Assembly (NCBI RefSeq): GCF_026162425.1
Contig: NZ_JAOBQJ010000003.1
Span: 310,001-374,000 of the forward strand
Length of the DNA: 64,000 bases
From: Flexivirga meconopsidis
Lineage (GTDB): Bacteria > Actinomycetota > Actinomycetes > Actinomycetales > Dermatophilaceae
Direction of reading: 5' to 3'
Part shown: piece after piece, positions 1-64,000 of the stretch
Numbering within the stretch: the first letter of the stretch is position 1
Layout: every line of letters starts with the position of its first letter
Made by a program: the position numbers and the translations under genes
Notes under the pieces: model-generated
What the model was told of the DNA's origin: nothing
Seen by the model: only the letters and a program-made list of their open reading frames with translations
Database searches by the model: none

Positions 1-7
1 CCCGATA

Positions 8-31
8 GCGACCGGGAGTGCTACCTCGGCG
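8..31 (+). repeat. Short repeat copy 1 beside the first DUF559 gene
   Basis: A 24-bp sequence with core CGACCGGGAGTGCTACCTCG, identical to the copy at 1020-1043 and present in inverted form with two mismatches at 984-1003. It ends 5 bp beyond the stop codon of the DUF559-type gene. The copies bracket that gene. More copies may lie left of the window. Confidence 0.8.
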
Positions 32-36
32 AGGAG

Positions 37-915
37 TCAGCTTCCCGGCAGGCGCAGCGCACGGGCGAGGGCCCGCATGGCCGGCTCGGGATTGCGATTG
101 TCGGCGCCGTTGAGCTCCAGCACAGCCCAGTCGGCCGCGCGCATCGCCCGGCGGCGCGTCTGATCGAGCCGGCGTTGGTCGACGGTGAAGTGGTAGTCGC
201 CGTCATACTCGGCGACGACGCGTTGCTCCCGCCATACGAAATCGCCCATCCCGAGCAAGAATCCGTGGTGGTCGTGCACGTCGGCGTTGAGTTCGGGGGC
301 GGGGAAGCCCGCTTGCCGAAAACGCAAGCGCCACAACGTTTCCTGGGGTGACAGCACTCCGGGGCGGATCAACCGGGCGGCCTCACGGGCGGCGCTTATG
401 CCGCCCCGGCCAGCGGAGTCGTCGACGAGTTTGGCGAAGCCCGGGAGCAGCTCGGGCGCTCGCTGCACGATCGCATCCCCGAGGATGACGAGGTCGTCGA
501 CCGGCAGCTTCGGCGCGAGGTCCAGCCAGGTCGTCAGCACCGAGGTGACCGGAAGATCGCCGGTCCGACGGATCTCCCGGGAGTCCAGGCCGTGGTGCAT
601 CACGACCCCGCGCCGTCGCACGAACACGCTGCGGGGCAGCGTGACGTGCAGGCGCTCGTCGCGCGGAGCCGGAAGGTCGAGGAGTTGGGCGGCGGTCGCG
701 TGGGAGAAGGCGACTCGGCCGGTCGGGAAGAGAAGCGGGTATGCCGCGGCGCGCTCGCGCAGTGCTCGCGTCTCGTCGGTCAGGCGAAGCCCGCGCGTCG
801 GGATGACCAGCCCGCGGTGACGCAGCCGGCCGGGTGTCAGGCCGCGTGCGCGGGCCGCGTCATACGTGAAGGCGGCCCCGAGCTCGGGTGGGAGCGGGGC
901 GGCACGGCGGGACAT
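37..915 (-). CDS. AbiEi-like winged-helix / DUF559 endonuclease-like protein
   Basis: This 292-residue protein has the two-part layout of the stand-alone actinobacterial AbiEi-antitoxin-like proteins. An N-terminal helical region of about 90 residues (GLTPGRLRHRG, then AFSHATAAQLLDLP) resembles the AbiEi winged helix. The C-terminal domain (about 200-290) resembles DUF559/Vsr-type PD-(D/E)XK nucleases, with candidate metal ligands D225, E236 and D238 (MGDFVW...VVAEYDGDYHF) and the usual hydrophobic strand WAVLELNG. No AbiEii toxin gene adjoins it, so it is not a standard type IV toxin-antitoxin pair. It is distantly similar in layout to the gene at 53870-54787, and like that gene it is flanked by its own repeats. 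Nuclease activity and target are inferred. The ATG at 915 was chosen because it opens the conserved N-terminal domain. Confidence 0.75.
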   Translation of the reverse strand: MSRRAAPLPPELGAAFTYDAARARGLTPGRLRHRGLVIPTRGLRLTDETRALRERAAAYPLLFPTGRVAFSHATAAQLLDLPAPRDERLHVTLPRSVFVRRRGVVMHHGLDSREIRRTGDLPVTSVLTTWLDLAPKLPVDDLVILGDAIVQRAPELLPGFAKLVDDSAGRGGISAAREAARLIRPGVLSPQETLWRLRFRQAGFPAPELNADVHDHHGFLLGMGDFVWREQRVVAEYDGDYHFTVDQRRLDQTRRRAMRAADWAVLELNGADNRNPEPAMRALARALRLPGS

Positions 916-60536: not shown

Positions 60537-60542
60537 CCCGAC

Positions 60543-61868
60543 ATGGCAACGACTCTCACCCCGATCCTCACCAAGTTCTGGGACGCGCCGCAGTCCTGGA
60601 CGATCGATACCTACGTCGACAACGAGGGCTACCAGGCGCTTGACAAGGCGCTCGCGATGAAGCCCGAGGACCTGGTCGCGATGACCAAGGACTCCGGACT
60701 GCGCGGCCGTGGCGGCGCCGGCTTCCCGACCGGCATGAAGTGGTCGTTCCTGCCCCCGCCGGACGGCGGCCCCCGCTACCTGGTGGTCAACGCCGACGAG
60801 TCCGAGCCGGGCACCTGCAAGGACATCCCGCTGATGATGGCGGCGCCGCACTTCCTCATCGAGGGCGTCGCGATCACGTCATACGCCATCGGCTGCCACC
60901 ACGCGTTCATCTACCTGCGCGGCGAGACCGTGCACGTCTACCGCCGGCTGCTGCGCGCGGTCGAGGAGGCGTATGCCGCGGGCCATCTCGGCAAGAACAT
61001 CCACGGCAGCGGCTTCGACCTCGAGGTCACCGTGCACGCCGGCGCCGGCGCGTACATCTGCGGCGAGGAGACCGCGCTGCTCGACAGCCTTGAGGGCCGC
61101 CGCGGTCAGCCGCGCCTGAAGCCGCCGTTCCCGGCGGTCGCGGGCCTCTACGCCCGACCCACCGTGGTCAACAACGTCGAGTCGATCGCCTCTGTGCCGC
61201 CGATCGTGCTGCACGGGCAGGAGTGGTTCGGCGACATGGGCACCGAGAAGTCCAAGGGCTTCGGCATCTTCAGCCTGTCCGGGCACGTCACCCGCCCCGG
61301 CCAGTACGAAGCGCCGCTCGGCATCACGCTGCGCGAGCTGCTCGACATGGCGGGCGGCATCCGGGGCGGTCACCGGTTGAAGTTCTGGACCCCCGGCGGC
61401 TCGTCGACGCCGATCTTCACCGACCAGCACCTCGACGTGCCGCTCGACTTCGAGTCGGTCGCGGCGGCCGGGTCGATGCTCGGCACGCGCGCGCTGCAGA
61501 TCTTCGACGAGACCGTCTCGGTCGTCCGGGCGGTCAGCCGCTGGATCGAGTTTTACGCCCACGAGTCGTGCGGCAAGTGCACCCCGTGCCGTGAGGGCAC
61601 TTTCTGGCTGAAGCAGATCATGGTGCGCCTGGAGCACGGCAAGGGCACCCAGGAAGACATCGACAAGCTGGTCGACATCTGCGACAACATCCTGGGCCGC
61701 AGCTTCTGCGCGCTCGGTGACGGCGCGACCAGCCCGGTGACCTCCGCCGTGCAGTACTTCCGCGAAGAGTTCGAGACCGGCATGCACACCCCGTGGTGGG
61801 AGGCGTTCCCGCCGGAGCGTTCGGTGCTCTTCGATGCTTCGACCGCTAAGGAGACCGCGTCCGTATGA
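60543..61868 (+). CDS. nuoF: NADH-quinone oxidoreductase subunit F
   Basis: A 441-residue flavoprotein that takes hydride from [12 protein letters not shown] (about 55-62) and [12 protein letters not shown] form the NADH/FMN sites, [19 protein letters not shown] is the FMN loop, and cluster N3 is bound by C343, C346, C349 and C389 (SCGKCTPC...SFCALGDGA). Its stop overlaps the nuoG start. Confidence 0.97.
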
Positions 61869-64000
61869 CGACAGTCACTCAGGCTTCAGCCGGCGGCGAC
61901 ACCCCGCCGCCCCCGCCCGAGCAGGTCAGCCTGACCGTCGACGGCGTGCAGGTGAGCGTGCCCAAGGGCACCCTGGTGATCCGCGCTGCCGAAGAAGTCG
62001 GCGTGCAGATCCCGCGGTTCTGTGACCACCCGCTGCTCGACCCGATCGGCGCCTGCCGCCAGTGCCTGGTCGACATCGCCACGCCCGGCCCGGACGGTTC
62101 GATGCGACCGATGCCCAAGCCGCAGGCGTCGTGCACCATCGAGGCCACCGAGGGCATGCAGGTGCAGACCCAGGCCACCTCGAAGGTCGCCGACAAGGCG
62201 CAGCAGGGCGTCATGGAGCTGCTGCTGATCAACCACCCGCTGGACTGCCCGGTGTGCGACAAGGGCGGTGAGTGCCCGCTGCAGAACCAGGCGATGAGCA
62301 ACGGCCGCCCGATGACCCGCTTCGACGACGTCAAGCGGACCTACCCCAAGCCGATCAACATCTCCAGCCAGGTGCTGCTGGACCGCGAACGCTGCGTCCT
62401 GTGCGCCCGCTGCACCCGCTTCTCCGAGCAGATCGCCGGCGACCCGTTCATCGCGCTGATCGAGCGCGGTGCGCTGCAGCAGGTCGGCATCTACGAGGAG
62501 CAACCCTTCAAGTCCTACTTCTCCGGCAACACCGTGCAGATCTGCCCGGTGGGTGCGCTGACCGGCGCGGCATACCGCTTCCGGTCCCGGCCGTTCGACC
62601 TGGTGTCGACGCCGTCGGTGTGCGAGCACTGCGCCAGCGGCTGCTCGCTGCGCACCGACCACCGCCGCGGTCAGGTGCTGCGCCGGATGGCGCTGGACAC
62701 CCCCGAGGTCAACGAGGAGTGGAACTGCGACAAGGGTCGCTGGGCGTTCAAGTACGCCACCGTCGACCGGCTCGAGACGCCGCTGGTGCGCGGTGCGGAC
62801 GGCACCCTGCAGGTCGCCGGCTGGCCCGAGGCACTCGCCGCGGCCGCCGCCGGCCTCGCCGCCGCCAAGGCGCGCGGCGGTGTCGGGGTGCTCACCGGTG
62901 GCCGGATCAGCGTCGAAGACGCCTACGCCTACAGCAAATTCACCCGTCTGGTGCTCGGCACCAACGACATCGACTTCCGGGCCCGGCCGCAGTCGGCCGA
63001 GGAGGCCGACTTCCTGGCGCACCACGTGGTCGCGACCGGCCCCGGCGACGGCAACGGCGAGACGGACGCGGTGACCTTCGGTGACCTGGAGAAGGCACCG
63101 TCGGTGCTGCTCGTCGGCATCGAGCCCGAGGAGGAGTCGCCGATCATCTTCCTGCGGCTGCGCAAGGGCTTCCGCAAGAACAAGACCAAGGTGCTTGCGG
63201 TCGCACCGTTCGTGACCCGCGGGCTGGCCAAGGTCGGCGGCACTCTGCTCGCGGCGGCCCCCGGCACCGAGGCCGAGGTGCTCGACGCGATCGCTCTCGG
63301 CAGCGGCGATCTGGCCGAGGCCGGGCAGGCGCTCGGCTCGGACAGCATCATCGTGGTCGGCGAGCGGATGGCGACCGTCCCCGGCGCGCTGTCGTCGGTG
63401 CTCGCCCTGGCCCAGGCCAAGGGTGCCCGCGTGGTGTGGGTGCCGCGGCGCGCCGGTGAGCGCGGCGCGCTCGAGACCGGCGCGATCGGCAACCTGCTGC
63501 CCGGTGGCCGCCCGGTCACCGACGCCACCGCCCGGGCCCAGGTCGGCACCGTCTGGGGCGAGGCCGACCTGCCTGCGCAGCCGGGTCGCGGCACCGACGC
63601 GATCCTGGCCGCCGCCGCGGCCGGGGAGCTCGACGGTCTGCTGGTCGGCGGCGTGGACATCCACGACCTGCTCGACCAGCCCGCGGCGATCAAGGCGCTG
63701 GAGCAGACCTTCGTGGTCTCGCTCGAGCAGCGCAAGGGCACCGTCCCGGCATACGCCGATGTGGTGCTGCCGGTCGCGGCGCAGCAGGAGAAGTCCGGGT
63801 CCTACGTCAACTTCGAGGGACGCGTGCGGCCCTTCGAGCGGGCGATCGAGAGCACCGACATCTCCGACTTCCGGGCGCTCGACCTGCTCGCCGGCGAGAT
63901 GGGGGAGTTCCTCGGCACCCGCACCGTCGACGAGATCCGCGGCCAGATGGGCGAACTCGGTCCCTGGACCGGTGCGCGTCCGGCCCGGCCGCGGGTGAAG
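61865..64000 (+). CDS. nuoG: NADH-quinone oxidoreductase subunit G, partial at right edge
   Basis: 712 codons are present; the stop lies beyond the window. [2Fe-2S] ligands are C53, C64, C67 and C90. The His-Cys3 cluster is H124, C128, C131 and C137 ([14 protein letters not shown]). A [4Fe-4S] uses C177, C180, C183 and C227. A further set C253, C256, C260 and a Cys near 287 (CEHCASGC...WNCDKGRW) would bind the extra N7-type cluster found in some bacteria. The molybdopterin-like domain follows from about 300. ATGA overlap with nuoF. Confidence 0.96.

What the first reader, a model, noticed from the sequence alone, without database searches (positions are those of the whole stretch)
1..64000. 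Octamer GTATGNCG / CGNCATAC is about fifteen-fold over-represented across the whole window
Seen: by hand I count about 108 GTATG/CATAC pentamers, and about 100 of them extend to GTATGNCG or its complement CGNCATAC (about 51 in one orientation, 49 in the other). At about 70 % GC, composition predicts only 6-7. All four bases occur at N. They lie mainly inside genes and force rare codons: many of the ATA Ile codons sit in it (for example GTC-ATA-CCG in nuoB, GGC-ATA-CCG in the DAG kinase and GMC genes), and many TAT Tyr codons are followed by GNC. Equal use of both orientations argues against Chi or KOPS. A density near one per 0.64 kb, location in coding sequence and an inverted pair used as terminator resemble DNA uptake sequences of Neisseriaceae and Pasteurellaceae. 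I know of no such sequence described in actinobacteria. A methyltransferase or nucleoid-protein site is the main alternative.
Basis: partly seen in the sequence, partly recalled or inferred. Interest (0 to 1): 0.87.

Follow-up and report, generated by a model that had tools for sequence, protein, structure and literature searches.

The report
Directional octamer with dialects in actinobacteria
Thousands of copies of one short asymmetric DNA word, evenly spaced on each strand and spelled differently in related genera, mark the chromosomes of this group of actinobacteria; it looks like a signal read in one direction by some DNA-handling machine, possibly one that repairs broken DNA.

Summary
Confirmed, and larger than reported. 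The window holds 100 GTATGNCG (51+/49-; 4.5 expected), the genome 5,745. Under a null keeping protein, codon usage and codon junctions it is the top word, 155 vs 20. It is nearly absent from islands and sparse in a conjugative element. Relatives carry other spellings of one skeleton, G[T/G/A]A[T/C]GNCG; of 38 genomes scored, 21 are clearly enriched, 20 for just one spelling. GTACGNCG is at least six-fold over its reversed word in 22 of 196 class genomes. New: same-orientation words exclude each other up to about 1 kb while opposite ones are independent (permutation z about 8). So the word is read directionally, which fits a Chi-like signal better than an orientation-blind uptake sequence. Type IV pilin is absent from 29 of 31 family genomes searched, RecC from 11 of 17 GTATG-word genomes. 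Against Chi: no polarity, and E. coli Chi shows no such exclusion. Best guess, 0.4: a Chi-like signal for the resection motor AdnAB, whose Chi regulation is called unknown in print; AdnAB itself was not tested.

The parts
201..63754. 100 copies of GTATGNCG / CGNCATAC across the window (51 +, 49 -); complete coordinate list
   Evidence: enrichment under codon null
201..237 (-). close direct pair (201-208, 230-237), the rarer same-orientation arrangement
17668..17695 (.). inverted pair CGCCATAC-(12 nt)-GTATGGCG between called genes 16383-17219 (-) and 17723-18868 (-), able to form a stem-loop; terminator role not tested
55523..55530 (-). word in the FAD oxidoreductase gene (CCG CCA TAC); kept in G001, G003, G004
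56901..56908 (+). word in nuoA (GTA TGG CG); kept in G001-G004, G007, G008, G022; GTG or GTC in G014, G015, G023, G027, G028
57308..57315 (-). word in nuoB using a rare ATA codon (CAC GTC ATA CCG); kept in G001-G004 and G007
58293..58300 (+). word in nuoD (CCG TAT GGC GCA); kept in G001, G004 and G015
59018..59025 (+). word in nuoD (TGT ATG GCG); kept in G001-G004, G007 and G015
60877..60884 (-). word in nuoF (ACG TCA TAC); kept in G001, G004, G007
60971..60978 (+). word in nuoF (GCG TAT GCC GCG); kept in G001-G004, G007, G008, G015, G022
62568..62575 (-). word in nuoG (GCG GCA TAC); kept in G001-G004, G007, G008, G015
63747..63754 (-). word in nuoG (CCG GCA TAC); kept in G001, G003, G004

Best explanation
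Shown: GTATGNCG is the local spelling of a word that recurs across the class Actinomycetes on the skeleton G[T/G/A]A[T/C]GNCG, kept at thousands of sites by selection or drive on DNA as such. In this genome it forms two independent, regularly spaced series, one per orientation (about one copy per 1.5 kb each). It is scarce in recently acquired DNA, and its spelling shifts between genera. Inferred: a machine that moves along DNA, or acts on one strand, reads the word in one orientation only, and a second same-oriented copy within about 1 kb adds little. My best guess is a Chi-like signal for the DNA-end resection motor AdnAB (or another helicase-nuclease): an enzyme entering at a break meets the word, switches from degradation to preparing the end for RecA, and needs one word soon after entry from either side, so both orientations are kept at regular spacing.
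For: Same-orientation pairs are 0.24-0.59 of expectation below 600 bp, 0.81-0.85 at 600-1000 bp and about 1.0 beyond; opposite pairs scatter around 1.0 (0.72-1.39) with no trend, in 404 kb of native G000 DNA; two control words in the same DNA show no such exclusion; the pooled GTATGCCG genomes behave alike and other GTATGNCG genomes more weakly. 384 inverted neighbours vs 290 +/- 12 in 2,000 orientation permutations, maximum 325; same-orientation pairs below 600 bp 125 vs 201 +/- 10. Each orientation alone is under-dispersed, variance/mean 0.67, 0.53, 0.50 for + and 0.69, 0.60, 0.50 for - at 1, 2, 4 kb. 0 of 127 control words are as even as the two orientations together. Strict specificity: no single-mismatch word is clearly enriched and most are depleted. 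Words arise by transitions and transversions at several positions and stay in place within a dialect: 9 of 9, 5 of 9, 7 of 9 and 6 of 9 in G001, G002, G003, G007, against 0 of 53 in six other-dialect genomes where shuffled control words keep 87 of 316. Occurrence in many families suits housekeeping repair better than competence (inference). Core enrichment and single-base variants of Chi are described for Proteobacteria (PMC8022716, passages). [quoted passage not shown]
Against: Known Chi is polarised; this word is 204/207 in 300 kb and roughly balanced in sampled stretches. In 450 kb of E. coli MG1655, Chi is polarised (89/25) and shows no same-orientation exclusion; its pairs cluster as control words do. 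The word is about six times denser than E. coli Chi (one per 746 bp, against one per 5 kb, PMC8022716, passage). RecBCD cannot be the general reader: RecC is absent from 11 of 17 genomes with the GTATG word. AdnAB was not searched for genome-wide and was not seen in the stretches held, so its co-occurrence is untested. One Mycolicibacterium has no excess of GTATGNCG or GTACGNCG over the reversed words although mycobacteria have AdnAB (PMC4824097). The exclusion reaches only about 200 bp in G027/G028 and is absent for GGACGNCG in G036/G039; alternation is not significant in G002, G003, G004, G007, G008, G015 taken singly.
Confidence: 0.4

Rival explanations
1. DNA uptake sequence: during natural transformation, fragments with the word are preferentially taken up through Tad/Flp pili and ComEA/ComEC, and biased uptake plus recombination spreads it. 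To fit the data the recognition would have to be strand- or direction-specific.
For: Even spacing, no polarity, scarcity in islands and a conjugative element, dialects that largely follow the tree with a kept skeleton, inverted close pairs (12 of 14 below 45 bp on C1); ComEC in 56 of 58 and TadE in 57 of 58 relatives. Dialects with a kept core and inverted pairs are reported for DUS (PMC3630211, passages), and even spacing is cited for them (PMC1939737, passages, whose author finds it less even than compaction signals would need); Micrococcus luteus takes up DNA with Flp pili (PMC6370729, passages). In the five outgroup genomes with codon-null results and pilin searches, pilin and PilM go with the word (present in G036, G039; absent in G043, G046, G048).
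Against: Spacing depends on orientation. Type IV pilin in only 2 of 31 family genomes searched and none in G223, which has 12,732 GTACGNCG. ComEC and TadE equally present in six wordless relatives. ComEA is an ordinary SLBB + HhH protein with no dialect-linked domain that I could see by eye. Single-mismatch words are not enriched. Occurrence in many families not known to me as competent (recalled).
Confidence: 0.25
2. Strand mark: a methyltransferase (or other modifier) marks the asymmetric word on one strand; words in both orientations at regular spacing give each strand a mark every 1-1.5 kb, used for strand discrimination in repair or for chromosome organisation. Dialect shifts are changes of enzyme specificity.
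For: Independent regular series per strand; strict specificity; changeable spelling. Precedent: HIP palindromes linked to orphan methyltransferases (PMC4390886, abstract and passages).
Against: No methyltransferase was searched for and no methylation data are held; the word is not palindromic, unlike HIP; I know of no over-represented asymmetric methylation site (recalled).
Confidence: 0.2
3. Codon or dinucleotide bias, or a mutational hotspot such as 5-methylcytosine deamination of GTACGNCG.
For: GTACGNCG is depleted in GTATGNCG genomes (76 vs 125), the direction deamination would give.
Against: Excess remains under the codon and junction null, in all six strand/frame classes; the excess of words (505) is about four times the whole expected GTACGNCG pool; words differ from homologues by T<-G, T<-C, A<-G, A<-C, G<-C and C<-A; orientation-dependent spacing.
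Confidence: 0.02

Closest known systems
Chi sites of RecBCD/AddAB (E. coli GCTGGTGG)
   Same: Asymmetric octamer, over-represented in resident DNA, scarce in acquired DNA, variants differ by single bases, read directionally (inferred here)
   Different: No leading-strand polarity, about six times denser, one free position, regular same-strand spacing that E. coli Chi lacks, present without RecC
DNA uptake sequences of Neisseriaceae (DUS) and Pasteurellaceae (USS)
   Same: High density, both orientations equal, even spacing, dialects with a kept core, inverted close pairs, scarcity in integrated elements (for Neisseriaceae: abstract of PMC7371117 in the listing)
   Different: Orientation-resolved exclusion, no type IV pilin in most family carriers searched, many families of one class rather than one family, Gram-positive hosts
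HIP1 (GCGATCGC) of cyanobacteria
   Same: Highly iterated short word with thousands of copies
   Different: Not palindromic; no methyltransferase link tested; spellings share a skeleton
KOPS/FtsK orienting sequences
   Same: 8-bp word with one free base (recalled for E. coli KOPS)
   Different: KOPS are skewed along each replichore (recalled); this word is balanced

Membership tests
Chi | Over-represented in resident DNA, rare in acquired DNA | tested here: met
Chi | Polarised on the leading strand | tested here: not met
   204/207 in 300 kb and 51/49 in the window; roughly balanced in stretches of 14 relatives, most uneven with 20 or more words 7/13 and 12/20. Replichores were not mapped.
Chi | Co-occurs with a RecBCD-type reader | tested here: not met
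   RecC in 23 of 58 relatives; absent from 11 of 17 GTATG-word genomes. AdnAB/AddAB not tested.
Chi | Changes the activity of a helicase-nuclease in vitro | not testable with these tools
   needs purified enzyme
DUS/USS | Equal orientations, even spacing, dialects with a kept core | tested here: met
DUS/USS | Type IV pilus with a minor-pilin receptor | tested here: not met
   PilM in 2 of 36 family genomes, none of the genus; N_methyl pilin in 2 of 31 family genomes searched
DUS/USS | Word raises DNA uptake in a competent strain | not testable with these tools
   experiment needed
DUS/USS | Orientation-blind spacing, expected if both orientations are equivalent | tested here: not met
   same-orientation exclusion only; no DUS genome was available as a control
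HIP | Palindromic word | tested here: not met
   GTATGNCG is asymmetric
HIP | Associated methyltransferase | not tested
   no methyltransferase search was run
KOPS | Strand skew along each replichore | tested here: not met
   replichores were not mapped, but no long stretch is skewed

The most novel reading that the evidence does not exclude
A previously undescribed genomic sign system of Actinomycetes: an asymmetric octamer with evolving dialects that forms two independent, evenly spaced lattices, one per strand (about one copy per 1.5 kb), read by an unknown directional or strand-specific machine, and giving each genus a private signature that separates its own DNA from incoming DNA.
Probability: 0.5. 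Interest if true: 0.93.

Novelty: new variant of a known kind. Interest (0 to 1): 0.87.

Why it matters
If Chi-like, it supplies a candidate for the missing recombination signal of AdnAB, called not known in 2016 and unclear in 2026 (passages), and makes the question testable with one oligonucleotide. If an uptake word, it would be the first I know of in Gram-positive bacteria (recalled) and would point to natural transformation in genera such as Nocardioides. Either way the per-strand regular spacing is a quantitative property not described in the passages I saw, dialects could act as barriers to gene exchange between genera, and word density gives a simple detector of mobile DNA in these genomes.

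Tried and rejected
Type IV pilus as the uptake machine: PilM in 13 of 58 and pilin in 30 of 80 genomes do not track the word well (pilin in 14 of 21 GTACGNCG-rich and 8 of 18 poorer class genomes, in 2 of 31 family and 6 of 10 outgroup genomes). ComEC and TadE are near-universal and so uninformative. An alignment of 29 ComEA proteins (28 found plus G000; G016 is a fragment) gave no receptor candidate by eye. RecBCD-Chi rejected as the general cause. Deamination and codon bias rejected. In-place dialect switching at nuo sites was looked for by eye in the printed alignments and not seen. AdnAB: a first ORF script printed nothing; a second listed 13 long ORFs with a Walker motif in the stretches held, of which five were scanned (RecB, RecD, two UvrD-type helicases, a HelD-like motor) and eight judged by the motif alone; no AdnAB was seen, which is weak evidence. 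The E. coli Chi control came out against the analogy. Rows dropped: G018, too little called coding DNA; L018, L021, L054, L078 likewise; nuoC, because my coordinates gave stops; L047, not held; G012 stretch not existing; islands C1:85-105 kb, C3:1-40 kb and C5 left out of the 'native' sets (for the evenness control). An earlier count gave 449 kb for the native set; the correct sum is 404 kb.
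Full report
Observation. GTATGNCG occurs 100 times in the window, 51 on + and 49 on -, against 4.5 expected from dinucleotide shuffles. 100 of 108 GTATG pentamers belong to it, and nothing outside the octamer is conserved within 20 bases. 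Genome-wide there are 5,745 copies in 4.28 Mb. To remove codon effects I shuffled synonymous codons among positions with the same amino acid and the same following base. The word stays at 155 vs 20.4 in 126 kb of called coding DNA and ranks first among the 7-mers and 8-mers tried, with or without one free base. Pooled over eight GTATGNCG genomes it is 567 vs 67, with excess in all six strand-by-frame classes. It is therefore a DNA-level feature.

Distribution along the genome. In 300 kb of contig C1, 5-kb bins hold 3-13 words, except three consecutive empty bins at C1:85001-100000 with GC at 61 % in the first two. C3:1-40000 has 3 words in 40 kb. C5:1-20000 (7 words) carries a TraG/TraD-type coupling protein and a weak TrbL match, that is a conjugative element. 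DNA that looks recently acquired thus has few words. Orientation is balanced on C1 (204/207) and roughly so in the sampled stretches of 14 relatives.

Dialects. Among 58 genomes the word is abundant in the genus (5,019-8,019 copies in the four other genomes) and patchy in the family. De novo ranking under the codon null shows what the others use: GTATGCCG in G011, G019, G021, G025, G035 and G022; GAATGCCG in G016; GGATGCCG in G020, G030 and, weakly, G005; GTATGCG in G024; GTACGNCG in G027; CGTACGNC in G028 and, weaker, G023; CCGGACGC in G014; GGACGNCG in G036 and G039 of other families. No clear word was seen in G012, G013, G017, G031, G046, G048 (G006 and G043 unclear). Scoring the eight spellings G[TGAC]A[TC]GNCG in 38 genomes, 21 have at least one with z above 5 and 20 of these exactly one; G016 has two. 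On a tree of Nuo proteins (34 genomes) the dialects largely follow clades, with several shifts. G010 may use GGAGNCGG (51 vs 14.6).

Breadth. In a class-wide sample GTATGNCG exceeds 1,000 copies in 5 of 393 genomes, all among the 8 of this family; none of the 385 others does. A few f41 genomes have raised ratios at low counts, e.g. 406 vs 95. GTACGNCG is at least six-fold over the reversed word in 22 of 196 genomes from seven families, up to 12,732 vs 788 copies. The reversed word is a weak control, since codon effects account for part of the ratio: in Nocardioides sp. Iso805N the genome-wide ratio of 7.3 corresponds to 40 vs 16 under the codon null in its 21-kb locus, and in G223 (ratio 16) to 42 vs 13.5. 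Highest named ratios (32 genomes searched): N. szechwanensis 9.4, Nocardioides Iso805N 7.3, Micromonospora orduensis 5.1, M. saelicesensis 4.4, Streptomyces halstedii 4.1; but a pool of nine Streptomyces/Kitasatospora loci and Motilibacter gives only 87 vs 69 under the codon null. Mycolicibacterium frederiksbergense has 1,909 vs 1,667. I read GTACGNCG as the older spelling and GTATGNCG as derived in this family; this is inference.

Maintenance. In the nuo operon, words of G000 sit at the same codons in G001 (9 of 9), G002 (5 of 9), G003 (7 of 9) and G007 (6 of 9), often holding rare codons, where shuffled control words keep 0.35-0.48. In six other-dialect genomes of similar synonymous identity 0 of 53 are kept, against 87 of 316 for control words. 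In G008, G015 and G022 3, 4 and 2 of 9 are kept. Over 29 word sites of eight genomes compared with 11 other genomes, one site is shared, 222 comparisons differ at more than one position, and the single differences include transitions and transversions at six positions. Near-miss words are mostly depleted (GTACGNCG 76 vs 125, position-7 and -8 misses 0.3-0.7) and none is clearly enriched, the highest being 55 vs 44. This argues against one mutational process and for strict recognition.

Neighbouring words alternate: 267 inverted vs 142 same on C1, 70 vs 29 in the window, 165 vs 86 in eight pooled GTATGCCG-type genomes, 68 vs 39 in G027, 64 vs 41 in G001; not significant singly in G002 (39/28), G003 (58/43), G004 (18/8), G007 (54/37), G008 (40/33), G015 (38/40) or the two Nocardioides loci (37/23). 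Permuting orientations over fixed positions in 404 kb of native DNA (581 words) gives 290 +/- 12 inverted neighbours, 384 observed. The pair correlation shows why: same-orientation pairs are 0.24-0.59 of expectation up to 600 bp, 0.81-0.85 at 600-1000 bp and about 1.0 beyond, while opposite pairs scatter around 1.0 (0.72-1.39) at every distance; two control words show nothing of the kind. In the GTATGCCG pool opposite pairs are in excess at 50-100 bp (13 observed, 2.8-fold). Each orientation is its own regular series (variance/mean down to 0.50 at 4 kb); of 127 control words of similar count none is as even as the two together. GGACGNCG in G036/G039 shows no exclusion, and G027/G028 only below 200 bp.

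What reads it. The rule says that orientation matters and that a second same-oriented word within about 1 kb is redundant. That is expected of a signal met by a directional motor or recognised on one strand, and not of an orientation-blind receptor. Hence I prefer a Chi-like function. RecBCD is not the general reader: RecC is missing from 11 of 17 GTATG-word genomes, though G000 has RecB, RecC and RecD. AdnAB, described as found in mycobacteria and streptomycetes, has no known Chi regulation (PMC4824097, passage; PMC13309787, passage). Two facts count against the analogy: the word is unpolarised, and E. coli Chi, measured the same way over 450 kb, is polarised 89/25 and shows no exclusion.

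Uptake alternative. Balance, dialects, inverted pairs and scarcity in mobile DNA are also DUS features, and even spacing is cited for them (PMC3630211 and PMC1939737, passages; PMC7371117, abstract in the listing). Tad and ComE genes of the M. luteus type are present (PMC6370729, passages). But type IV pilins are absent from 29 of 31 family genomes searched, ComEA looks ordinary, and the orientation rule is unexplained unless uptake is strand-specific. In its favour, among five outgroup genomes pilin goes with the word. No DUS genome was available as a control for the pair correlation, so DUS keeps 0.25. A methylated strand mark would also give per-strand regularity and keeps 0.2; it is untested.

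Organism. A family member equal in counts to G026 is the MAG 'Actinomycetota bacterium isolate PHYC1 3300026286-bin.7'; Intrasporangiaceae (to which Phycicoccus belongs) is a guess from that label alone. Occultella lies in another family of the order (its genome has the counts of G048).

Novelty. No paper in the searched library holds 'GTATGNCG', and searches for uptake or over-represented words in actinobacteria listed no paper whose title or abstract describes such a word; I did not read the listed papers in full. The library lacks most subscription papers.

Noticed in passing
window 28542-28780, 53640-53790, 54810-55110; also G000 C6 (L120 about 19332-19460) and C7 (L121 about 3883-4060): Arrays of a 51-52-bp unit containing GTGCATAACTCGAAACGGTTGCGG, in the window all three between called genes, the last just upstream of the gene at 55213.
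   Followed up: partly
L104 (G028 nuo locus) 2946-4320: CGATATCG recurs with 51-bp period (offsets 4159, 4210, 4261, 4312), perhaps the counterpart of the window's 51-bp arrays.
   Followed up: partly
L037 (Mycolicibacterium frederiksbergense): Palindrome CGATATCG at 11 scattered places in 21 kb; 20 vs 2.2 under the codon null counting both strands: a HIP-like palindrome candidate.
   Followed up: no
G000:C1:85001-100000, C3:1-40000, C5:1-45000 and 60001-90000: Stretches poor in or free of the word; C5:1-20000 has conjugation genes and C3:16519-17036 a TadE pair, so word density may map mobile or recent DNA.
   Followed up: partly
G010 (L091, L186): GGAGNCGG is the top word (51 vs 14.6), possibly a one-base-shorter relative of the skeleton.
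   Followed up: no
L045 genome (Nakamurella MAG): GTATGNCG 1,046 vs 237 reversed genome-wide but only 4 vs 2 under the codon null in its 21-kb locus: possible independent occurrence outside the family.
   Followed up: no
window 2882-5194 (-): HelD/HelR-like RNA-polymerase recycling motor, below the curated cut-offs of those models.
   Followed up: no
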